Source of the DNA: Pseudomonadales bacterium
Lineage (GTDB): Bacteria > Pseudomonadota > Gammaproteobacteria > Pseudomonadales > JAHRWD01
Reading direction: 5' to 3'
Assembly: GCA_016763075.1 (NCBI GenBank)
Contig: JAESUM010000054.1
Span: 1 to 33,027 of the forward strand
DNA: 33,027 nt
Shown here: in pieces, positions 18,222 through 31,156 of the stretch
Numbering within the stretch: the stretch's first letter is position 1
Layout of the letters: the number at the start of each line of letters is the position of its first letter
Made by a program: the position numbers and the translations under genes
Notes under the pieces: generated by a model
What the model saw: only the letters and a program-made list of their open reading frames with translations
Database searches by the model: none
Told to the model about the DNA's origin: nothing

Positions 18222-19214
18222 ATGATGAAGATCAAAACACTCAAATTCGCAATGCCATTAGTTCAGTTGGTACAGTCGGTTACGTTAGCTAAGCCAGCTG
18301 CGTTGGCCGCACTAGTAGCGATGGTTCCGCTGTTAAGCGCCTGTGAAACCAGCACCCTTAAAACCGTTCCTTCAAAACTAGGCCAGGCTTCAAGCATGCA
18401 ACAACTGCGTGCATCGTTAGCCGCCCCCGGCACTGTAGTGTTTACCAAGCATCTGTCTGCTAACTGGCAGATAAACTTATCTGGCCTGCTCAATTTGGAA
18501 CACCCAAAAGCCATAGAAGCAGGGCTTGAAGAACGTGCAGAGCCCATAGAAATTTACCTGTACAGCCTTCAGCATCCAACAAAAGGCACCTACTTTGTAG
18601 ACTCAGGTGTGTCTGAAAAAATGTTGCCCAATAGCGACACAAGCGATCTTTCTTATGGCGTAAAAATGGCCATGGACACCGATGCACTGAAAGTGCGTAA
18701 AACCACCAAATCAATCGCCAGTACCTTTCCTGACGGAATAAACGGCGTGTTTTTAACCCACATTCATATTGACCATATTTTAGGAGTATCGGATTTACCC
18801 AAAGGCGTTGCCGTGTATTTGGGCCCCGGCGATGTTCAGTTAAGTAACTTTGCCAACGCCGCCGTTCAAGGCACAACCGACAGGTTGCTGGCTAACGCCA
18901 AGGTGCTTAGGCAGTGGGGGTTTGAGGGCAGCACCAAGCCGCAAGTGATCGACATTTTTGGTGATGGCTCTGTCTGGGCTATTCATTCGCCGGGGCACTC
19001 GCCAGGCACCACCGCGTATGTGGTAAACAGTACCACCGGCCCGCATCTGTTAACGGGGGATGCCAGCCATACCGCGTGGGGGTGGAAGCACCAAGTTGAA
19101 CCGGGTACTTTTTCTGCGAACATACCACAAAGCGTAACCAGCCTGAACGTACTGGCTGAACTGGTAAAAGAGTTCCCGCAGATACACGTGCACTTGGGGC
19201 ATCAGTCGTTGTAG
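18222..19214 (+). CDS. Lipoprotein-type metallo-beta-lactamase-fold hydrolase
   Basis: Zinc-dependent hydrolase of 330 residues in the MBL superfamily; the general shape resembles N-acyl-homoserine lactonase-like members, but the substrate is not determined. The N-terminus is a lipoprotein signal ending in LLSA-Cys41, so the protein should be anchored to a membrane outside the cytoplasm. The metal motif H-X-H-X-D-H is TH-IHIDH (His180, His182, Asp184, His185). Further ligands appear in HSPGHSPGTT, TGDASH and the C-terminal HVHLGHQS. Two adjacent ATGs (18222, 18225) follow GGAG, and the second has better spacing. Its divergent LysR neighbour is broken, so expression may now be constitutive or silent. 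Confidence 0.85.
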   Translation: MMKIKTLKFAMPLVQLVQSVTLAKPAALAALVAMVPLLSACETSTLKTVPSKLGQASSMQQLRASLAAPGTVVFTKHLSANWQINLSGLLNLEHPKAIEAGLEERAEPIEIYLYSLQHPTKGTYFVDSGVSEKMLPNSDTSDLSYGVKMAMDTDALKVRKTTKSIASTFPDGINGVFLTHIHIDHILGVSDLPKGVAVYLGPGDVQLSNFANAAVQGTTDRLLANAKVLRQWGFEGSTKPQVIDIFGDGSVWAIHSPGHSPGTTAYVVNSTTGPHLLTGDASHTAWGWKHQVEPGTFSANIPQSVTSLNVLAELVKEFPQIHVHLGHQSL

Positions 19215-19457: not shown

Positions 19458-20150
19458 TTATGCGCGACGTTTTGAAAAACGTAAACCAACAATACCCAAA
19501 CCCATCAGCGCTAGTGTTGCGGGCGCAGGGATTTGTGATGGCGGTGTTGGCGGTGTTGGCGGTAAGGGTGGCGTCACAGTACCGGCTTCGTTGAAGCCGG
19601 TAACTAGTCCATAGGAGTCTGTTGCTTCTCTGAACAGTCTAGACATTCCATCAGAGTTGGCGTTTACAGCATCGAAGAAGGTAACGCGGGAGCTAGTCAT
19701 ACTAATATTGCGTACTTGCATCAATAAGTTGCCGGTGTTGGCATCGTAGTTAAATACGCTGGTTAGAATAAAATCTAACCGGTCACCAAATGTTCCAGCA
19801 GATATTTCACCGGTGTAAACAACAGCGACATCCGAACCTAAATTATCGGTAGAGTTATTGCTCAAGTTATCTACAGTTGCAGCGGTTGTTGAAAGGCTAA
19901 TTTCTATGTTGCCAGTTGAACCCCAATCTCCGCCGTCGTTGAAGGTGTTATAAAAGCTTAAGCTGGCAATGTTGGTGGTGCCAGTAAAATACGAAGCATC
20001 AAATACTTGCTGGTATACAGGCTCCCAATTGGTGCAGCCAAAAGGGAAGCAATTGTTCGCTGTTGCGGGGCCGCCAATTATAGAGGCCTGAGTGTTGCCA
20101 ATGGTTGCCAGGGCGAAAATCAGCCCGGCAATAAGTTGTTTTATGTTCAT
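19458..20150 (-). CDS. PEP-CTERM sorting domain protein
   Basis: Secreted protein of 230 residues destined for the exosortase (EpsH/XrtA) sorting route that accompanies exopolysaccharide production. It has an N-terminal signal peptide (MNIKQLIAGLIFALATIGNTQAS), a beta-rich middle of about 155 residues without an obvious enzymatic motif, and a Pro/Thr linker (PPLPPTPPTPPSQ). It ends with the PEP-CTERM tripartite tail: P-A-P motif, hydrophobic stretch ATLALMGLGIVGL and a basic end RFSKRRA. Two Cys near residues 33 and 39 may pair. A sigma-54-type promoter is placed about 50 bp upstream. No exosortase gene is in the window, so sorting depends on one elsewhere in the genome. Confidence 0.88.
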   Translation of the reverse strand: MNIKQLIAGLIFALATIGNTQASIIGGPATANNCFPFGCTNWEPVYQQVFDASYFTGTTNIASLSFYNTFNDGGDWGSTGNIEISLSTTAATVDNLSNNSTDNLGSDVAVVYTGEISAGTFGDRLDFILTSVFNYDANTGNLLMQVRNISMTSSRVTFFDAVNANSDGMSRLFREATDSYGLVTGFNEAGTVTPPLPPTPPTPPSQIPAPATLALMGLGIVGLRFSKRRA

Positions 20151-20609: not shown

Positions 20610-21395
20610 TCAAGGCGCAGCGATACTTAACGGCGGCACATAGTCGCTGCTTTCACAGGGCGAGCCATCAATATAATTAAAAGTAACTTCTTGGTTTATG
20701 ACTGAAATATGGCTAAAACTAACGGTTTTGGCGTCTTCTCTGTGCATGCACACTGCGCGATAATTCTTATCTCCATTGTCGTCAGTTGCGTGATAATTCT
20801 TGTGCTGGATCCTACGCAAGGTTGGATTAACTCCCGGTGCAGGTGATGAAAAGCTGGCCGCAAATAATTGTGTTCTGGTTTTGAATACTTCATCAAATGA
20901 AACAGAAGATGAAGTCATCATGTTGTTTGGTGCAAAAGAGCCCAGTTGCTTGCCATCCCACTGAAAAACTTGCTCAGTTATTTTGTTTGTATGAAGTGCT
21001 GAGCCAGGTGCAGAACTACTTGCGTGAAGTACAGAACTACGGGCAAATGCCACCAAACTAAAGGGTGCGTAATTCATTAAATCTAATGATTTAATTGCTT
21101 GGGCAACTTGCTCGATATCTTCCAAATGCGCAAATGAGCGTAACAGCTTGCCACGGCTAATGAGCCTTCCTGCTGGGGTGCTACCTTGATAATAATTCAA
21201 CAAACAAAGTGTTAGGCCAAGTTGGTTAACGCTGATCCAACTGCCGCCGCCATCGGGATCAATGGGCAATAAAACGGTTATAGATTGGTGTTCTATTGCG
21301 CTGGGAATATTGGCTTGTTGGCGTGTGCGCTGTTCATCGCGGTTAAAAAAAACCTGGTACTGCTCATCATCACGAAACCAAGTTAAGGTGCACAC
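20610..21395 (-). CDS. NRDE family protein (TANGO2-like)
   Basis: A 261-residue member of the NRDE/TANGO2 family. It begins MCTLTWFRDDEQYQVFFNRDEQRTR: Cys2 becomes N-terminal after Met removal, as in Ntn hydrolases, and the name-giving N-R-D-E motif is at residues 18-21. Family members have been linked to acyl-lipid or haem handling, but the bacterial reaction is not known. The segment DPDGGGSWISVNQLGLTLCLLNY is also typical. No signal peptide, so cytosolic. It overlaps the DinB-like gene by 13 bp and is the last gene of a five-gene run with ATP-grasp ligases and a transporter. In that setting a role in acyl or amide transfer onto the pathway product is an attractive guess. Confidence 0.87.
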   Translation of the reverse strand: MCTLTWFRDDEQYQVFFNRDEQRTRQQANIPSAIEHQSITVLLPIDPDGGGSWISVNQLGLTLCLLNYYQGSTPAGRLISRGKLLRSFAHLEDIEQVAQAIKSLDLMNYAPFSLVAFARSSVLHASSSAPGSALHTNKITEQVFQWDGKQLGSFAPNNMMTSSSVSFDEVFKTRTQLFAASFSSPAPGVNPTLRRIQHKNYHATDDNGDKNYRAVCMHREDAKTVSFSHISVINQEVTFNYIDGSPCESSDYVPPLSIAAP

Positions 21396-21913
21396 ACGGC
21401 CACCTGTTGCTTGCGTATAAAGGTTGCAGTGGAAGGTGCTAAGCCTAATATCGGATCAACTTGTTTGCCGGCAATTTTGGCAATAACTGCCATTAGTGCA
21501 AGGTGATGAGTTAAATGGCTGGAGGCAAAACTTAACTCGCGCCCAAAAGAGGAGTCATACTGCTGGGTGCTTTGAGTATTCATAGAAACTTCGGTGATGA
21601 TTTTAATCGGTTTATCAATATTTTCACAGGAGACGATATTGAGCCATGAGTTAATATCGCGTAACTCTTGCAGGCCAATTTTACGGTTTGTTTCTATTGC
21701 TGCGCCTCTACGCCTTACGTCGTAATCTATTGTGGTGCCGTCTGTATTGACGATCAAAGCCAAGTACAAATCTACAATATGGCGAAGGTGTTGCCCAATA
21801 GAACTATCAAACCAAGGTTGTGCTCGGAAGGTGTATTGAGTGTCATTGAGGTCGTCAATAAAGTTGATCAGCTGATCAACGGCTTCAAGATTTCCTGTTA
21901 CGGTAATGTTCAT
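21383..21913 (-). CDS. DinB-fold protein
   Basis: A 176-residue four-helix-bundle protein of the DinB/YfiT superfamily, whose characterised members are divalent-metal enzymes using low-molecular-weight thiols (bacillithiol transferase, mycothiol-dependent maleylpyruvate isomerase). The metal-binding His set appears as SSIGQHLRHIVDLYLAL (His42, His45) and ASSHLTHHLALM (His133, His136, His137), matching the H...HxxHH layout. Helix 1 begins NLEAVDQLINFIDDL. The start overlaps the transporter stop by 4 bp (ATGA), and its end overlaps the NRDE gene by 13 bp. Coupling to both neighbours argues for a step in the same pathway; the substrate is unknown. Confidence 0.8.
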   Translation of the reverse strand: MNITVTGNLEAVDQLINFIDDLNDTQYTFRAQPWFDSSIGQHLRHIVDLYLALIVNTDGTTIDYDVRRRGAAIETNRKIGLQELRDINSWLNIVSCENIDKPIKIITEVSMNTQSTQQYDSSFGRELSFASSHLTHHLALMAVIAKIAGKQVDPILGLAPSTATFIRKQQVAVCAP

Positions 21914-23148
21914 AATGTTTTGCCGGATGTGCGAAAATATTTGTGAAATTTGTTACGCGATGCAAACAAATAAAGGCTGTAGCCAAGTGCCAATGGCGCA
22001 GCCCATAAGTAGGTGTAAGCCAAACCTGTTTTAACGGTTTCTTGGTTGTAAAAAACCAGCGCTAATACCCCGAAGAAAATAAAAATTCCAAATTGTGAGT
22101 AATAGCTTTTACAAATTAGGTATTGGTAGGTATTTTGTTGTTTGGCAATGTCGTAAAAACGTTTATTAAAGACTAAGCGAAAAAAGGTGCTGAAAAACCC
22201 AATAATAAGAAGGGTTGAATAGAGTACTAATTCTTCGCTTTGGGAATCTATGGTGCCTCTTAAAAGCCAGCTTGCCGCGTACGCAACGGCCCCAATTATA
22301 AAAATAGTGGGTTGGTGGGCATTGTCGATTTTGGTTTTGATAAGAAAAAATACAACCGACAATATTAGGGTTAAAGCTACAACAATAAACCCTAAGGTAA
22401 ATAGGCTTTGGTGTGTAAGCAGGTAAATAGACAGCACCCAAAAATAGCTCTCAAGATACAAAAAAGGTCCGTCGAGTAAGAATATTGTTTTAGATTTATT
22501 TTGGTCTTTAAAAGCCAAAATAGCTGTAAAGCCAAGTGCGGGTTCTTCAATGTTGTTTATGTGATTTGTTGTACGGTCAGCTTGTTTGTTGTGTGGGCTG
22601 GCAGTGTTGCCTTTGGTGAGCAAGTAAAACCCAATGGAAGAGGTCAAAACAGACAGCGCCGCAATGGCTGTAATGGCCGTAATTCCAATGGTTTCTAACA
22701 GGTAGCCGCCGGCAAGTATTCCAACCTTTAGTGAAATCACTACAATAATTTGAAAGTTACCAAACCTATTTCCGGTGGTTTTAGCAGAGCTAATATGGTT
22801 GAACATGGCTCGCTGGGTAGACCAGTAAAAACAATTGTACGCGCCATTTAAAAGCGCTAGTCCAAAAATAGATAGCGATGAAGGTTGCCAGGCTAACAGC
22901 CCAATAAGCAATAATTCTGCGATAAACGAAAGCGCAATTATTTTTGTCCATTGGTTGTTTTCGCGTAAGCCGTCCCAGTACCAAAGGGTTATTATGAACC
23001 CCGCGCCGGTTAACGAAATAAAGCCCGATATTTTAGCTAGGCTTGCGCCGCTTTCCCATAAAATTACAGGGATGAAAAACGGCAGTAATCCTATCAATAA
23101 TGAATGAAATCCTGAGAACGTATAAAAGTCTCTTGGGGTTATATTCAC
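21910..23148 (-). CDS. MFS-like multi-spanning membrane transporter
   Basis: A 412-residue polytopic inner-membrane protein with about 12 hydrophobic segments in two halves split by a hydrophilic loop near residues 180-220 (NTASPHNKQADRTTNHINN). The fold and length fit the major facilitator superfamily. The start is GTG, overlapping the preceding ATP-grasp stop by one base (TAGTG on the minus strand). Its embedding between ligase and DinB genes suggests it exports, or less likely imports, the product of the cluster. It has no clear match to a named drug-efflux or sugar-porter subfamily that I can recognise. Confidence 0.8.
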   Translation of the reverse strand: MNITPRDFYTFSGFHSLLIGLLPFFIPVILWESGASLAKISGFISLTGAGFIITLWYWDGLRENNQWTKIIALSFIAELLLIGLLAWQPSSLSIFGLALLNGAYNCFYWSTQRAMFNHISSAKTTGNRFGNFQIIVVISLKVGILAGGYLLETIGITAITAIAALSVLTSSIGFYLLTKGNTASPHNKQADRTTNHINNIEEPALGFTAILAFKDQNKSKTIFLLDGPFLYLESYFWVLSIYLLTHQSLFTLGFIVVALTLILSVVFFLIKTKIDNAHQPTIFIIGAVAYAASWLLRGTIDSQSEELVLYSTLLIIGFFSTFFRLVFNKRFYDIAKQQNTYQYLICKSYYSQFGIFIFFGVLALVFYNQETVKTGLAYTYLWAAPLALGYSLYLFASRNKFHKYFRTSGKTL

Positions 23149-24056
23149 TAAAAAGTATCAGTCTGCGCTATTTCAAGTTGTTCAAGAGAATCCAAGTATT
23201 CAGAAAGATCTTCTTTTTCTCCGTAGCGTGGGTAGTCGTGCATTTTCAGGTAAGGTCTTGAGTTTACTTCAAGAAATATACATTTTTGATCGCGGTAATC
23301 TGTTTCGATTCCCTTTTCTAAAATGACATCAATTCCCAAAATATTGGCATCAAACAGGCTTAATACGCGTTTGAATAAATCTTGGTTAACTTGCGGTATG
23401 GTTTGTTTGTCGATGGTTCTTACTACCCCGCCTGGGGCAAGTGATATTCTGTAAAACAAGGTGATGATTTCACCTTTGCTAGGAATGCTAGTCAGGCTTA
23501 GCTTTTGTTTTTTGAGGAACTTCTGCGTCACCGCACCTTTTTGAAGCGGGTAGATGCAGGGGTATAATTGCATCTGTTCTCTGATTTTATTTTCTTGATC
23601 GATAAGTGCCTCAATAGTATGTGCACCATTACCTTCTACAAATGGCGAATAACGCTGTAGTACAGACATAATTTCCCCCTGCGCCACCACTACACGGTAA
23701 TTACTGCCTTCTAAATATTGCTCTACAACAGTAGCGGGCCACCACAACTTGGCAAAAAATATCGCTTTCCATAATTCTGAATAGCTGCGAATAGGAAAGT
23801 GGCTGCCACGAGAAAACCCGCTTACGTTGGGTTTAATTACCAGCGGAAACCCATGTTGTTTTGCAAAGGTAATGGCCTTAAACGGGTTGATAAATATAAG
23901 CCCCTTTGCGTGGGGAACATTACCTTGTGAAAACACTGCACGGGCTTGCTCTTTTGAGCGGCAACTTTTGCGCACCTCTAGGCTGTTGTAACTGCTGCAG
24001 CCATCCATAAAGCGGGCGCTGATCCATTGATAAACTGATTTTCTAATTGCACTCAT
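23148..24056 (-). CDS. ATP-grasp ligase, cyanophycin-synthetase/GshF-like
   Basis: A 302-residue ATP-dependent carboxylate-amine/thiol ligase related to the ATP-grasp part of cyanophycin synthetase and bifunctional glutathione synthetase. Visible motifs are FPLVIKPNVSGFSRGSHFP (nucleotide Lys and Gly-rich loop), VVEQYLEGSNYRVVVAQGEIM, the GNGAHTIEALIDQENKIRE segment that in cyanophycin synthetase reads very similarly, LGIDVILEKG and the metal-binding FLEVNSRPYLKMHDYP (E-X-N). The catalytic core looks intact, but the N-terminal substrate domain of full synthetases is absent. It overlaps the upstream ATP-grasp gene by 4 bp (ATGA) and the transporter gene by 1 base. It is predicted to form an amide bond in a small peptide-like product. 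Confidence 0.85.
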   Translation of the reverse strand: MSAIRKSVYQWISARFMDGCSSYNSLEVRKSCRSKEQARAVFSQGNVPHAKGLIFINPFKAITFAKQHGFPLVIKPNVSGFSRGSHFPIRSYSELWKAIFFAKLWWPATVVEQYLEGSNYRVVVAQGEIMSVLQRYSPFVEGNGAHTIEALIDQENKIREQMQLYPCIYPLQKGAVTQKFLKKQKLSLTSIPSKGEIITLFYRISLAPGGVVRTIDKQTIPQVNQDLFKRVLSLFDANILGIDVILEKGIETDYRDQKCIFLEVNSRPYLKMHDYPRYGEKEDLSEYLDSLEQLEIAQTDTF

Positions 24057-24916
24057 GAGTGTGGCTCATTGGAAGGTGTGGTTTTATTGGATAGCTTCAG
24101 TCGGTGCGCCAAGGTTCGCTTTTTAAAGAAGACAGATTTACGCGGCTGCGACAAAGGTATGGTTTTGGTAACCGCTGCCAAATGCCACATAGCGCGAACA
24201 ATAAAGGCAATTTTGTTACCCCAGTTACAGTTGTTGGAAAGCACGATTAATGGCATTGGGTAAAGTAGATTAATTTCTATGATTTGGAAATCGCCGCTGA
24301 CTAACGCTTCAAGACTGTTGGCACGTATGCCGACCCGAGATAACCTAAAATCGCCTATTTGTGATAAATGCTGCCACAGCAATTTAACTTGGTCATCGCT
24401 CAATTGTGACGATAGGTCGCAATAGGAAGTGGCTTGGTTATAGATACCATTAATGGGGTACAGCTCGTCGCTGTGGTTAATGGTTTCGGTAATTGATAGC
24501 ACTGCAGGCGGCTGGCCTGAGTGGGTTGCTGCAATAACAAATACTTCGAATTCGCGTTTTCCAGCGGCGGCATTTTGAATTAAATAATTGCTGTTGCGGT
24601 TGCTGCTGTTTGGGGCGCGGCCAGCGCGAATCTTGCTGAGTTGTTGCAGGTTGTCTGCGCGCTGAATACCAAATGAGTTTTGGCCCCATTCTGGTTTCAC
24701 GAATACCGGGTAGTGTGCTGGTTGGCTGTTACCACAATCTAGCACCTGTGTAAGACGCCAGGGTTTTGGAATTAGCTGGTCGGTGTCTAGTTTTGAATAG
24801 ATCCCCAGCTCTTGGTTAAAGTAGTTGGCATTAAGCTGAAAATAGCGCCAAGCCGGTGCTCGCTGGACCACGCAAAACAGAATGTACGTGAATATTTGTG
24901 AGAGTCGAATAATCAA
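24053..24916 (-). CDS. ATP-grasp ligase, D-Ala-D-Ala ligase-like fold
   Basis: A second, divergent ATP-grasp protein of 287 residues. The nucleotide strand is YPVFVKPEWGQNSFGIQ, the linking strand YLIQNAAAGKREFEVFVI, and the metal pair FQIIEINLLYPMP (E-X-N), so the catalytic core looks intact. The N-terminus (about 1-25; LSQIFTYILFCVVQRAP) is hydrophobic and may associate with the membrane. The best start is TTG 24916, nine bases after an AGG; no in-frame ATG precedes the conserved part. Having two unlike ATP-grasp enzymes in one operon suggests two successive amide-forming steps or the joining of two different building blocks. The substrate is unknown. Confidence 0.8.
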   Translation of the reverse strand: MIIRLSQIFTYILFCVVQRAPAWRYFQLNANYFNQELGIYSKLDTDQLIPKPWRLTQVLDCGNSQPAHYPVFVKPEWGQNSFGIQRADNLQQLSKIRAGRAPNSSNRNSNYLIQNAAAGKREFEVFVIAATHSGQPPAVLSITETINHSDELYPINGIYNQATSYCDLSSQLSDDQVKLLWQHLSQIGDFRLSRVGIRANSLEALVSGDFQIIEINLLYPMPLIVLSNNCNWGNKIAFIVRAMWHLAAVTKTIPLSQPRKSVFFKKRTLAHRLKLSNKTTPSNEPHS

Positions 24917-24937
24917 GTGAAAACCTAGAAGTAACCG

Positions 24938-25456
24938 TTACACCGTTGAAGTTCCGGTGTCAGAAGCCTTGCAGCTCAAAAAGTTCAATGCAAATAACGT
25001 GATGCTCCATATCAGTATTGAAACCGCCGCATAAAACAGTGAGCCGTTGTCACTTTGGCCATGGTGAATAACCTCTATGCCAAGGGGCGTAAACAAGTGA
25101 AAGAACACAGCGCCGGCCATCACGCCTGCGGCCATTAACCCGCCCAGCGCATGAATAACTGCCGTTGGTGGTACGGCTGCGACGAGCCGAGCTTTTTTCA
25201 ACGCAAAGAACAGTATGGGTGAAAGCAGCACCAAGCTTGTGAGTAGCTCAACACTGCCCACCGCATATGCGCCATATTGGCCAAACAACGCGCCAAATTT
25301 ATTACCCAAAATGCCCTGCATCCATGTGCCTATGGTGCCAAATATATGCTGTGTGTCGGGGTGGCCGGTAAATTTATACGGTAGGGAAAACAGAAAGACT
25401 TTTGCTGTCCATAAAACAATTAACCAGCTAACGATGTTTATGATTTTATTCTTCAT
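24938..25456 (-). CDS. DoxX-like integral membrane protein
   Basis: A 172-residue membrane protein with four hydrophobic helices (about 5-22, 62-82, 95-125, 140-160) resembling the DoxX/DUF4870-like small membrane family. Segments such as SLPYKFTGHPDTQHIFGTIGTWM and AVGSVELLTSLVLL are typical of DoxX proteins. The function is unknown; relatives are linked to thiosulfate oxidation or redox stress. It lies 22 bp upstream of the ATP-grasp genes and 48 bp downstream of the YHS-domain gene on the same strand, so it could be cotranscribed with either. Confidence 0.75.
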   Translation of the reverse strand: MKNKIINIVSWLIVLWTAKVFLFSLPYKFTGHPDTQHIFGTIGTWMQGILGNKFGALFGQYGAYAVGSVELLTSLVLLSPILFFALKKARLVAAVPPTAVIHALGGLMAAGVMAGAVFFHLFTPLGIEVIHHGQSDNGSLFYAAVSILIWSITLFALNFLSCKASDTGTSTV

Positions 25457-25504
25457 GGGTTTGTCTCGTGTGAAGGCATTCGATTTTTGGGCTTTCGGCG
25501 CAGA

Positions 25505-25966
25505 TTATTTTAAAACCTTGGGCCAAAAAGCATTGGCTTTAATGATCAGTGCGCTTTTGTCGCTGAACCATTTTTGGCGAATTTCGGCGTTGTAATTAAG
25601 GTACAGCTTGGCTTCGTGAATGGCCCATTGCTTGGGATCGCCTTTGGCCGTGCTGTTATTGGCAACGGCCCAGGCGCAATAACCGCCGTATTGCGGTGCG
25701 TATTTTTCAGGCGTGGCAATAAACGCATTGAGGTTTTCTTGGCTGTTGAAATGCCATTGGGTATCCATGTATTGGGTCGAGTAATGTTTGTTGCCTTTTA
25801 CCGGTTTTCCCGCATTAAAGTAGGCAACGGTGTCGTACCCTGATAGCGCTACATTGCTGAAATACCCGGTATAAATAGCAGGCTTAGCAAAAGACTGACT
25901 AGAAAACGCAGCAACCAACACAAGAAAAGCAGCAGCCAGCATGTTCGGAGCAGGAAGTTTGTTCAT
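25505..25966 (-). CDS. Exported YHS-domain protein
   Basis: A 153-residue protein with a cleavable signal peptide (about 1-27, ending QSFAKPA) and a YHS-type domain (SGYDTVAYFNAGKPVKGNKHYS), a family often found with metal or copper trafficking and proposed to bind metal. The block YAPQYGGYCAWAVANNSTAKGDP also matches periplasmic YHS proteins, and includes one Cys. The ATG follows GAGG at good spacing. It is followed by the DoxX-like gene, an arrangement common in Proteobacteria and suggesting a small envelope redox or metal unit. Confidence 0.83.
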   Translation of the reverse strand: MNKLPAPNMLAAAFLVLVAAFSSQSFAKPAIYTGYFSNVALSGYDTVAYFNAGKPVKGNKHYSTQYMDTQWHFNSQENLNAFIATPEKYAPQYGGYCAWAVANNSTAKGDPKQWAIHEAKLYLNYNAEIRQKWFSDKSALIIKANAFWPKVLK

Positions 25967-29582: not shown

Positions 29583-30854
29583 TTATCCATCCGTTTCCAT
29601 CCGAAAATTGGGGTGTAACAATTTCCAATGCTCTTTAAGCTGCTCTTGGTGCGCTTCATTCATAGGCAGGTCTTTGAGTACATTTGGCCATAGGGTGCGC
29701 GCTTTATCCAACGTGTCTTCCAAATGCGGTTTGATAGCGCGCCATGGAATACCCGCTTTTTCTGCCCATATTTGAAAGTGGTCAAAAGAGGTTTTATACC
29801 ACTCCTTATTCTTAGCAAGGTTCAGAGCAAACTTTGTTTCGCCATTCATGTAAACGCTTGTCGTCACAATATCATAAGCGGGAGAGAGCTCGGGTGTGAT
29901 GGTATCGGGGTAAATCAAGCTCCAGTTCTTTAAATGCGCGTCACCATTGGCCAAAAGAATATTGACCAATAATCGGCGCGCAAACTGCTGAACATTGCCA
30001 AGACTGTCGCCTGTGTATTCGTATATAACTTTACCGATTTGCTCATAGTTAGCACTGTTGTATTTTTCACTAGGATATTTCACCAGAATTTGTGCGAAGT
30101 CTTCCATGTGGATACGCTGACCATCATTGCGATCAAAGCGCCTGATGGCAAAGGCATATTTTTCATCAGGCAGGTTGATAGAAGGGAGTTCGTCTAAGCT
30201 ATTTAATTCGACCAGCTTAATATCAGGTATATCAACCCCAGCCAATTCAGCAAGACGCATTGCGGTAAATTCATTTAAGGGAACATGAACGTGCTTTGTC
30301 GAAGGTGTTTTGATGATCCAGTCACCGAGTTCACCCGATTTTGCGATTTGATAACGTCCGTCTTTTTCCCTCATGGAAAATTTCATTTGTACGCCAGCCA
30401 AAGAAAAATGATGCTCGTCATCCTGTAGGCGGGTTTTGACCACTTTCGCGTTACCGGTTGCGGTTAGTAAATAGTCAGGGATGTTGTCAGGTTCAACAGG
30501 GGTTGCGATTAATGCACCGGGTAAATCCTGCCCGAGATAGGTGAATAGCTCAAACTCATTATCGATATGGGTTTTAAGACCTTGCGCTAGTAGTTCTCGT
30601 AAAGCACCTTCGGGTAACAGGTTGGATAATACAGGGTGCAGTCGTTGTCTTTTTACCCATGGTTCTGAAAGTAGTTTATCGACATTGGGGAAATCGGGAT
30701 GTGTGGTAAGGCTGAAAGTCGGTCTTGCTGAATTTACTAGAAATTCAGGCGCAAAGATTAAAATATTTCGACCACCTTTGTAGCCTGTCAAATACCCCAC
30801 AATAGTTCCATGCAGGGTAAGCTTTAATACGCTAACTTCTTCTGTGGTGCTCAT
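29583..30854 (-). CDS. hipA: HipA-like Ser/Thr kinase toxin
   Basis: Toxin kinase of the type II HipBA family, whose model member phosphorylates Glu-tRNA synthetase and induces dormancy. The 423 residues show an N-terminal subdomain, the P-loop-like FSLAGVQMKFS with Ser151 at the position of the E. coli autophosphorylation Ser150, WIIKTP (ATP Lys), catalytic LLANGDAHLKNWS (Asp305, Asn310) and the metal Asp328 in PAYDIVTT. All expected catalytic residues are present, so it should be active. The ATG overlaps hipB by 4 bp (ATGA), ensuring antitoxin comes first. It lies inside the right-hand island. I cannot tell its target from the sequence. Confidence 0.93.
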   Translation of the reverse strand: MSTTEEVSVLKLTLHGTIVGYLTGYKGGRNILIFAPEFLVNSARPTFSLTTHPDFPNVDKLLSEPWVKRQRLHPVLSNLLPEGALRELLAQGLKTHIDNEFELFTYLGQDLPGALIATPVEPDNIPDYLLTATGNAKVVKTRLQDDEHHFSLAGVQMKFSMREKDGRYQIAKSGELGDWIIKTPSTKHVHVPLNEFTAMRLAELAGVDIPDIKLVELNSLDELPSINLPDEKYAFAIRRFDRNDGQRIHMEDFAQILVKYPSEKYNSANYEQIGKVIYEYTGDSLGNVQQFARRLLVNILLANGDAHLKNWSLIYPDTITPELSPAYDIVTTSVYMNGETKFALNLAKNKEWYKTSFDHFQIWAEKAGIPWRAIKPHLEDTLDKARTLWPNVLKDLPMNEAHQEQLKEHWKLLHPNFRMETDG

Positions 30855-31156
30855 TCGTCATTCCCCAATAATTCTTGCCAAGGGTCGTCTGACAGGGTTT
30901 CTGGGGTGACAGTGCCTTTGGTGCTCATTGTGTCATTTAATAGATCGCGTACCGCACGAAGATTTTCTTGAGGTATTAACATTAGCTCCATCTTCAAGCC
31001 TTTTGCCACCAGTTCAAGGGTGTCCAATCTTGGGTTCCCCTTAGCCTCAAGCCGTTGGTACTGTTGGCGAGCCATACCGACACGAAGTATCATGTCTTCT
31101 TGCTTTAGGCCGAGCGCCTTTCTTTGTTTCTTTAGTTGTTCGTGTATGGCGCTCAT
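30851..31156 (-). CDS. hipB: HipB-like XRE antitoxin and repressor
   Basis: A 101-residue XRE/HTH_3 antitoxin paired with the HipA kinase. The N-terminal 65 residues form a classic helix-turn-helix (LGLKQEDMILRVGMARQQYQRLEAKGNPRLDTLELVAKGL split at the turn). The C-terminal tail (MSTKGTVTPETLSDDPWQELLGNDE) is acidic and flexible and may contact HipA. The start follows AGGAG, and a perfect TATAAT is about 40 bp upstream. Two palindromic operators lie upstream, so autorepression is expected. The stop overlaps hipA by 4 bp. Confidence 0.92.
   Translation of the reverse strand: MSAIHEQLKKQRKALGLKQEDMILRVGMARQQYQRLEAKGNPRLDTLELVAKGLKMELMLIPQENLRAVRDLLNDTMSTKGTVTPETLSDDPWQELLGNDE

What the first reader, a model, noticed from the sequence alone, without database searches (positions are those of the whole stretch)
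20610..24916. Unnamed five-gene locus: two ATP-grasp ligases, transporter, DinB-fold and NRDE proteins
Seen: five minus-strand genes joined by overlaps of 4, 1, 4 and 13 bp, with intact E-X-N metal motifs in both ATP-grasp proteins, intact His positions in the DinB protein and Cys2 plus NRDE in the last one. Established: ATP-grasp enzymes make amide bonds; the DinB superfamily includes thiol S-transferases; NRDE/TANGO2 proteins share an N-terminal Cys with Ntn hydrolases. Inference: a pathway that builds, modifies and exports a small peptide or thiol-like compound. I know of no described system with this set.
Basis: partly seen in the sequence, partly recalled or inferred. Interest (0 to 1): 0.8.

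Follow-up and report, generated by a model that had tools for sequence, protein, structure and literature searches.

The report
Seven-gene ATP-grasp locus in marine bacteria
A block of seven neighbouring genes, kept together in various marine bacteria, looks like an undescribed pathway in which two ATP-driven enzymes join small molecules, perhaps a taurine-like compound, into a product that is exported or placed in the membrane.

Summary
The five overlapping genes are real (overlaps 4, 1, 4, 13 bp), but the unit has seven: a YHS-domain and a DoxX-like membrane protein gene precede the first ATP-grasp gene (AG1) and are conserved with it. The core AG1-AG2-MFS recurs widely: of 59 named loci with enough flank, AG2 is present in 58, MFS 56, YHS 40, DoxX-like 38, DinB 23, NRDE 14; all seven in 13. 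In seven genomes, six of them MAGs, a cysteine-dioxygenase-like gene and a CSAD/GAD-like decarboxylase sit beside AG1 or AG2, suggesting hypotaurine as a building block there. DinB, NRDE, YHS and DoxX-like also form a sister operon with another ATP-grasp ligase, a VTT membrane protein and an OlsF-like aminolipid synthase. I propose ATP-driven amide ligation of an amine such as hypotaurine to a carboxylate, giving an exported or membrane-linked product. No hit to the dioxygenase, decarboxylase or OlsF models was found in the window genome, so the chemistry is inferred. No description of the set was found.

The parts
20610..21395 (-). NRDE/TANGO2 family protein, 261 aa; Cys2 and NRDE motif intact; candidate Cys-Ntn amidase or acyl-CoA binder (inferred)
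   Evidence: (TANGO2 45.8 bits, cut-off 22.6)
21383..21913 (-). DinB-fold protein, 176 aa, conserved His residues
   Evidence: (DinB_2 at its cut-off); no PDB sequence match at E<=0.1 (98)
21910..23148 (-). MFS-type transporter, 412 aa
   Evidence: just below cut-off; beside AG1 in 74 of 80 loci
23148..24056 (-). AG2, ATP-grasp ligase near the cyanophycin synthetase G domain / GshF, 302 aa
   Evidence: (cya_phycin_syn 141 bits over residues 32-286, cut-off 850)
24053..24916 (-). AG1, ATP-grasp ligase, 287 aa, TTG start, N-terminal helix that reads as hydrophobic
   Evidence: AlphaFold mean pLDDT 92.5; best fold D-Ala-D-Ala ligase, E 1.4e-8, query TM-score 0.49
24938..25456 (-). DoxX-like multi-helix membrane protein, 172 aa (name tentative)
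   Evidence: no Pfam or NCBIfam match itself and no PDB fold match at E<=0.001 (70)
25505..25966 (-). YHS-domain (seleno)protein-family member, 153 aa, N-terminal leader by eye; conserved Cys, no selenocysteine seen
   Evidence: (YHS_seleno_dom 153.8 bits, cut-off 70)

Best explanation
The seven genes 20610-25966 are one conserved biosynthetic operon. AG1 and AG2 use ATP to form amide bonds between a carboxylate and an amine. In some lineages the amine is most likely hypotaurine (or taurine), made by the CDO-like and CSAD/GAD-like enzymes encoded beside AG1 or AG2; in the window organism it must come from outside or be a related amine. The MFS protein moves the product or a substrate across the inner membrane. 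DinB, NRDE, YHS and DoxX-like are a shared service module that also accompanies an OlsF-type aminolipid pathway built round a related ATP-grasp ligase, so the product is probably amphiphilic or membrane-linked, with NRDE as a candidate Cys-Ntn amidase or acyl handler. Shown: conservation, order, homologies, motif integrity, sister operon, CDO/decarboxylase linkage. Inferred: amide product, identity of the amine, membrane link, role of each accessory protein.
For: Conserved core. AG2 aligns with CphA and GshF ligases; AG1 has a Ddl-like fold. CDO-like gene plus decarboxylase beside AG1 or AG2 in 7 genomes: L061, L067, L070, L084, L097/L124, L120, L122. Of 50 AG1 genomes 11 have a CDO-profile match; the 6 strong ones (E<=5e-46) all lie beside AG1 or AG2. 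The close decarboxylase (E<=1.3e-234) is in 7 of 56 handles, each time beside AG1 or AG2. The CDO-like proteins keep the substrate Arg, two metal His, and the later His and Tyr of solved CDO chains. The decarboxylase profile is nearest to GADL1 and CSAD, then GAD67, with aromatic + Ser (W108, S128) where CSAD has F/S, GADL1 Y/S and GAD67 S/N. Sister operon VTT-ATP-grasp-DinB-NRDE-YHS-(DoxX)-OlsF-like: of 13 loci found by the ligase alone, OlsF-like 10, DinB 9, NRDE 9, YHS 9, VTT 9 (plus a fusion in L256), DoxX-like 4; complete in the named Vibrio sp. THAF64 and Photobacterium sp. GJ3. Its ligase is homologous to AG1 (E 4.6e-14) and AG2 (4.3e-12). TANGO2 binds acyl-CoA through NRDE (PMC11867700, abstract and passages) and resembles Cys-Ntn amidases such as bile salt hydrolase and NAAA (PMC13044924, passages).
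Against: In the window genome (95% complete) no match to CDO_I at E<=0.001, to the decarboxylase profile at E<=1e-40, to the OlsF model at E<=1e-5 (66) or to the sister ligase at E<=1e-15. None of the 7 CDO/decarboxylase genomes has an OlsF-model match, and none of the 13 sister loci has CDO or decarboxylase: the two clues never meet in one locus seen here. Six of those 7 genomes are MAGs and the seventh is unnamed. A single decarboxylase sequence matches GAD65 best, then GAD67, then CSAD, so CSAD activity is not settled; Pfam CDO_I is passed by 1 of 3 proteins tested, and the third metal His does not line up in the printed alignment (an invariant His lies 5 columns away). 18 of 55 AG1 genomes have a full-length OlsF-type protein; 12 of 59 loci have AG1-AG2-MFS with none of the other genes. 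YHS proteins of the two cluster types do not separate cleanly. L177 and L179 have DinB-NRDE with OlsF-like or OlsA/OlsB but no ATP-grasp ORF in the stretch held. The sister ligase also occurs without DinB, NRDE, YHS or Ols genes in Paracoccus, Azospirillum and Komagataeibacter.
Confidence: 0.38

Rival explanations
1. Sulfur-redox or thiol system: hypotaurine or a cysteine-derived conjugate serves as a sulfide/persulfide or low-molecular-weight thiol carrier; DinB is an S-transferase, and DoxX-like, YHS and the FAD/disulfide oxidoreductase handle electrons and metal.
For: CDO/decarboxylase linkage; a VTT-fused pyridine-nucleotide-disulfide oxidoreductase lies between DoxX-like and AG1 in L074, L078, L091, L092 and within about 4 kb of AG1 in 5 of 80 loci, and precedes the decarboxylase in L122; DinB His residues conserved. 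The role of DoxX and DinB in thiol chemistry is recalled, not from a call.
Against: The DinB/NRDE/YHS/DoxX set also sits with OlsF-like aminolipid synthases; I recognised no thiol-synthesis gene in the neighbourhoods listed, where many ORFs were left unidentified; DinB has no PDB sequence relative; DoxX-like has no fold match.
Confidence: 0.2
2. Soluble di- or tripeptide (osmolyte, storage or antioxidant peptide, cyanophycin- or carnosine-like) made by AG1 and AG2 and moved by the MFS protein; accessory genes are loosely linked.
For: AG2 is nearest to CphA/GshF ligases; the core AG1-AG2-MFS stands alone in 12 of 59 loci; a GAD/GADL1-like decarboxylase could make GABA or beta-alanine instead (family knowledge; PMC7367687 title and start of abstract only).
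Against: A CDO-like gene is not needed for GABA or beta-alanine; AG1 starts with a helix that reads as hydrophobic; accessory genes recur in order.
Confidence: 0.27
3. No common pathway: independently useful genes that happen to be neighbours.
For: DinB and NRDE are missing from many loci; a same-genus genome, G004, has no AG1 match.
Against: Order and close spacing kept down to about 42% AG1 identity in several phyla; DoxX-like sequences split by cluster type with none misplaced.
Confidence: 0.04

Closest known systems
Aminolipid synthesis (OlsBA/OlsF ornithine lipids, GlsB/GlsA glycine lipids) and the ornithine-taurine lipid cerilipin
   Same: The sister operon holds OlsF-like or OlsB+OlsA-like proteins with an ATP-grasp ligase that could amidate the lipid's free carboxylate (inferred); a taurine-ornithine headgroup and 'taurine transfer' are mentioned in PMC12493201 (passages) and cerilipin in PMC6669457 (passage)
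   Different: No OlsF-model match in the window genome; the OlsF-like proteins scanned score 346-435 bits against a cut-off of 620; no ATP-grasp, DinB or NRDE gene was named in the passages I read
Cyanophycin synthetase G domain / GshF ATP-grasp
   Same: AG2 aligns over residues 32-286; E-x-N and Lys kept
   Different: AG2 is a 302-residue stand-alone protein, far below the equivalog cut-off (141 vs 850 bits)
Taurine synthesis by CDO and CSAD
   Same: Genes of both kinds beside AG1 or AG2 in 7 genomes
   Different: No match in the window genome; next to ligases and a transporter; substrates untested
Human TANGO2
   Same: Pfam TANGO2 (4); Cys2 and NRDE; sequence match to 8sv7, E 7e-5 (97)
   Different: Only the first half aligns (residues 14-129 of the chain)

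Membership tests
ATP-grasp ligases | ATP-grasp fold with Lys and E-x-N metal site | tested here: met
   AG1 model best fold Ddl, K74/E214/N216 invariant; AG2 K75, E263/N265 (13) and alignment to CphA. AG2 was not modelled. Pfam scores below cut-off
Cyanophycin synthetase | Score above the equivalog cut-off | tested here: not met
   AG2 141 bits against 850 (5)
Ornithine/aminolipid synthesis | OlsB/OlsA or OlsF in the genome | tested here: not met
   No match in G000 at E<=1e-5 with the OlsF model; separate OlsB/OlsA models were not searched in G000. Sister operon: OlsF-like, OlsA- and OlsB-like proteins, those scanned all below equivalog cut-offs
Cerilipin-type lipid | Taurine amide on an ornithine lipid | not testable with these tools
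   needs lipidomics
Taurine synthesis (CDO + CSAD) | Both genes present | tested here: not met
   No match in G000; both kinds of gene in 7 related genomes, activity untested
DinB superfamily S-transferase | Three-His metal site | tested here: inconclusive
   Conserved His (49), Pfam borderline, no PDB match; activity not testable
TANGO2/NRDE | N-terminal Cys plus NRDE, Pfam TANGO2 | tested here: met
YHS (seleno)protein | NCBIfam model above cut-off | tested here: met
   153.8 bits against 70 (5)
DoxX | Match to a DoxX model or fold | tested here: inconclusive
   No match itself; sister-operon proteins hit DoxX_2 or MauE below cut-off

The most novel reading that the evidence does not exclude
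AG1/AG2 make a hypotaurine- or taurine-amidated amphiphile, a sister of taurine-ornithine lipids, and the NRDE protein is its Cys-Ntn amidase or acyl handler. That would give ligases for such lipids and a bacterial substrate context for the disease protein TANGO2.
Probability: 0.2. Interest if true: 0.85.

Novelty: new variant of a known kind. Interest (0 to 1): 0.7.

Why it matters
It gives a recurring, tractable set of genes for four poorly understood families (NRDE/TANGO2, YHS, DoxX-like, small DinB) with two concrete clues to chemistry: hypotaurine-forming enzymes and aminolipid synthases. If right, it names candidate ligases for amino-sulfonate amide lipids, and makes the open question of what TANGO2-like proteins act on directly testable in non-pathogenic marine bacteria.

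Tried and rejected
Selenocysteine in YHS: no in-frame stop and Cys kept in the hits printed. An ornithine lipid as the product in the window organism: no OlsF-model match in the genome. DoxX-like by fold: no PDB match at E<=0.001 (70). DinB by PDB sequence: none. AG2 on named plasmids: no match at E<=1e-20 (104). Cerilipin link through acetic acid bacteria: the sister ligase occurs on Komagataeibacter plasmids, but in the one looked at beside a methyltransferase and an iron-redox enzyme, not Ols genes, so it is not used as support. Paper searches for the gene set returned nothing that describes it. The promoter scan gave fewer hits than shuffles (mean 13.5), so no promoter is claimed.

Selections: one search returned the best 80 of 162 relatives, so counts lean to close ones; one search used 50 of 80 loci; one search aligned 75 of 80 loci (left out L049, L051, L052, L066, L095); one search aligned 34 of 43 DoxX-like; one search counts 59 of 80 with flanks. 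Searches left out G263, G266 and G286, and one search also G244, as the same genomes under other handles; one search kept both G150 and G244, which share a contig length and may be one genome counted twice. Ten of the 23 sister loci were found through DinB or OlsF searches and are biased; the 13 were found by the ligase alone. Four of the 10 misplaced YHS are distant second copies. Residue numbers of CDO, the idea that the F/S positions mark CSAD, and the roles of DoxX, DinB and DedA/VTT families are recalled; the residues themselves are. The 2013 paper on a decarboxylase selectivity motif was not held; I saw only its reference.
Full report
OBSERVATION. The five minus-strand genes exist as described, with overlaps of 4, 1, 4 and 13 bp and intact motifs. 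Two more genes belong to the unit: a DoxX-like membrane protein (24938-25456) and a YHS protein (25505-25966), 21 and 48 bp from their neighbours. Both lie beside AG1 in all 7 near-full-length relatives of the first order-level search. Pfam support is modest: TANGO2 and YHS pass, DinB_2 is at its cut-off, MFS_1 and the ATP-grasp models fall below theirs; NCBIfam places AG2 near the cyanophycin synthetase ATP-grasp region (141 bits, cut-off 850).

DISTRIBUTION. AG1 matched 10 of 244 genomes drawn from the order, 8 over nearly full length including the window's own and 2 only over 44 residues; a same-genus genome (G004) had no match, and 214 further genomes without a match were not listed. A scan of named genomes found 162 relatives and kept 80: Psychromonas, Colwellia, Neptunomonas, Amphritea, Endozoicomonas, Granulosicoccus, Osedax symbionts, SAR324, Desulfobacterales and others. 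In the 59 loci with at least 3 kb upstream and 4 kb downstream of AG1: AG2 58, MFS 56, YHS 40, DoxX-like 38, DinB 23, NRDE 14, all seven 13; AG1-AG2-MFS with none of the others 12. Overlaps between neighbours are common. At E<=1e-15 AG1 matched 1 of 297 genomes of the phylum that holds L084 (L084's own genome) and 5 of 52 of the phylum that holds L070.

CLUE ONE, HYPOTAURINE. In L061, L067, L070 and L084 a group II PLP decarboxylase and a cysteine-dioxygenase-like cupin lie directly upstream of AG1. L097 has the decarboxylase (18) and, found by profile, the cupin (33); read again as L124 it runs YHS-DoxX-decarboxylase-CDO-AG1-AG2-MFS (38). L120 has YHS-decarboxylase-CDO-AG2-MFS, with full-length AG1 on another contig; L122 has oxidoreductase-decarboxylase-CDO-AG1. 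In L100 (L125) only 16 residues of a CDO match before AG1, and L121 has CDO-AG1 without the decarboxylase. Of 50 AG1 genomes, 11 had a CDO-profile match at E<=0.001; 6 are strong and all 6 lie beside AG1 or AG2. The close decarboxylase occurs in 7 of 56 handles, always beside AG1 or AG2; weaker paralogues occur elsewhere in 26 more. Six of the seven genomes are MAGs by their titles (14); the seventh, G633, is unnamed. The CDO-like proteins align with solved CDO type 1 chains at the substrate Arg, two metal His, and the later His and Tyr; the third metal His does not line up in the printed alignment, though an invariant His lies 5 columns away. Pfam CDO_I is passed by 1 of the 3 tested. The decarboxylase profile is nearest to GADL1 (1.6e-101) and CSAD (1.8e-100), then GAD67 (9e-98), with an aromatic residue and Ser where CSAD has Phe and Ser and GAD67 Ser and Asn; the single L070 sequence instead ranks GAD65 (7e-82) and GAD67 (2e-78) before CSAD (1e-74). 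Either order of oxidation and decarboxylation of cysteine would give hypotaurine (established chemistry). The window genome gave no match to either gene, so there the amine would be taken up or different.

CLUE TWO, AMINOLIPIDS. A DinB profile matched 15 of 369 class genomes, 12 of them away from AG1 clusters. These led to a sister operon with another ATP-grasp family ('EFWP', alignment A9) and OlsA+OlsB-like or OlsF-like acyltransferases. Not all fit: L177 and L179 have DinB-NRDE with Ols-type genes but no ATP-grasp ORF in the stretch held, and L181-L183 show none of these partners. A search with the ligase alone matched 13 of 398 phylum genomes at E<=1e-15; neighbours within about 7 kb were OlsF-like 10, DinB 9, NRDE 9, YHS 9, VTT 9, DoxX-like 4, none assigned to CDO, decarboxylase, AG1, AG2 or MFS. 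In L256 the VTT domain is fused to the ligase. Named records with the whole operon: Vibrio sp. THAF64 and Photobacterium sp. GJ3; Salinivibrio kushneri has VTT-ligase-DinB-NRDE; Variovorax has the ligase followed by an OlsB-like frame. Against this, Paracoccus, Azospirillum and Komagataeibacter carry the ligase without DinB, NRDE, YHS or Ols genes (VTT is fused in Azospirillum and close by in Paracoccus). L217-L221 show the sister cluster in five genomes that also have AG1. The sister ligase matches AG1 and AG2 by profile comparison, while AG1 against AG2 gives only E 0.03; I infer that both derive from such an ancestor. In trees DoxX-like splits by cluster type with none misplaced (support 0.99), DinB with 3 and NRDE with 1 misplaced; YHS does not split cleanly (10 misplaced, 4 of them distant second copies).

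MECHANISM. The simplest joint reading is amide-bond synthesis by AG1 and AG2 on a carboxylate, with hypotaurine or taurine as the amine at least where CDO and the decarboxylase are present, and a product that is amphiphilic or crosses the inner membrane. NRDE fits an amide- or acyl-handling role: human TANGO2 binds acyl-CoA through NRDE (PMC11867700, abstract and passages), and its crystal structure resembles Cys-Ntn hydrolases including bile salt hydrolase and NAAA (PMC13044924, passages). Window-type NRDE matches TANGO2 only over the first half. None of this is biochemically shown. The lipid clue and the hypotaurine clue never occur in one locus seen here, and only 18 of 55 AG1 genomes have a full-length OlsF-type protein; these are the main weaknesses.

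KNOWN SYSTEMS. Ornithine, glutamine, glycine, lysine and cysteinolic-acid aminolipids are reviewed in PMC11631085 (passages; 'ATP-grasp' appears only in its reference list); a sulfonate aminolipid and SalA in PMC8319176 (abstract and passages); a taurine-ornithine headgroup in PMC12493201 (abstract and passages) and cerilipin in PMC6669457 (passage). 'ATP-grasp' and 'DinB' do not occur in the main text of the V. cholerae OlsF paper; it mentions a putative four-gene operon VCA0649-VCA0646 whose other genes I did not identify (PMC12186959, passages). No paper found or 116 describes this set; the library lacks most subscription papers.

VERDICT. Real, conserved and undescribed as far as searched; chemistry plausible but unproven. 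Interest 0.7, new variant of a known kind.

Noticed in passing
L244-L253, L261, L263: A compact operon VTT-ATP-grasp-DinB-NRDE-YHS-(DoxX)-OlsF-like in several gammaproteobacteria (9 of the 13 loci have at least ATP-grasp, DinB, NRDE, YHS and OlsF-like), not named in papers searched; the ligase is annotated as D-alanine--D-alanine ligase in Salinivibrio.
   Followed up: partly
L256:6619-8343: VTT domain fused to the sister ATP-grasp ligase; the matching Azospirillum plasmid gene is annotated as a VTT domain protein.
   Followed up: partly
L074, L078, L091, L092: VTT domain fused to a MerA/glutathione-reductase-like FAD oxidoreductase between DoxX-like and AG1 (only the L092 protein was scanned).
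   Followed up: partly
Granulosicoccus-type loci among L068-L099: An AMP nucleosidase-like gene follows the MFS gene in 15 loci, and a clan AA aspartic protease-like gene precedes AG1 in 10 (one member of each was scanned).
   Followed up: no
window 29583-31156: HipA-like kinase gene overlapped by a small upstream ORF, perhaps a HipAB-type pair; the small ORF was not scanned.
   Followed up: no
window 18222-19214: Metallo-beta-lactamase-fold protein nearest to AHL lactonase models, below their cut-offs.
   Followed up: no
window 19458-20150: PEP-CTERM protein about 460 bp downstream of the locus.
   Followed up: no
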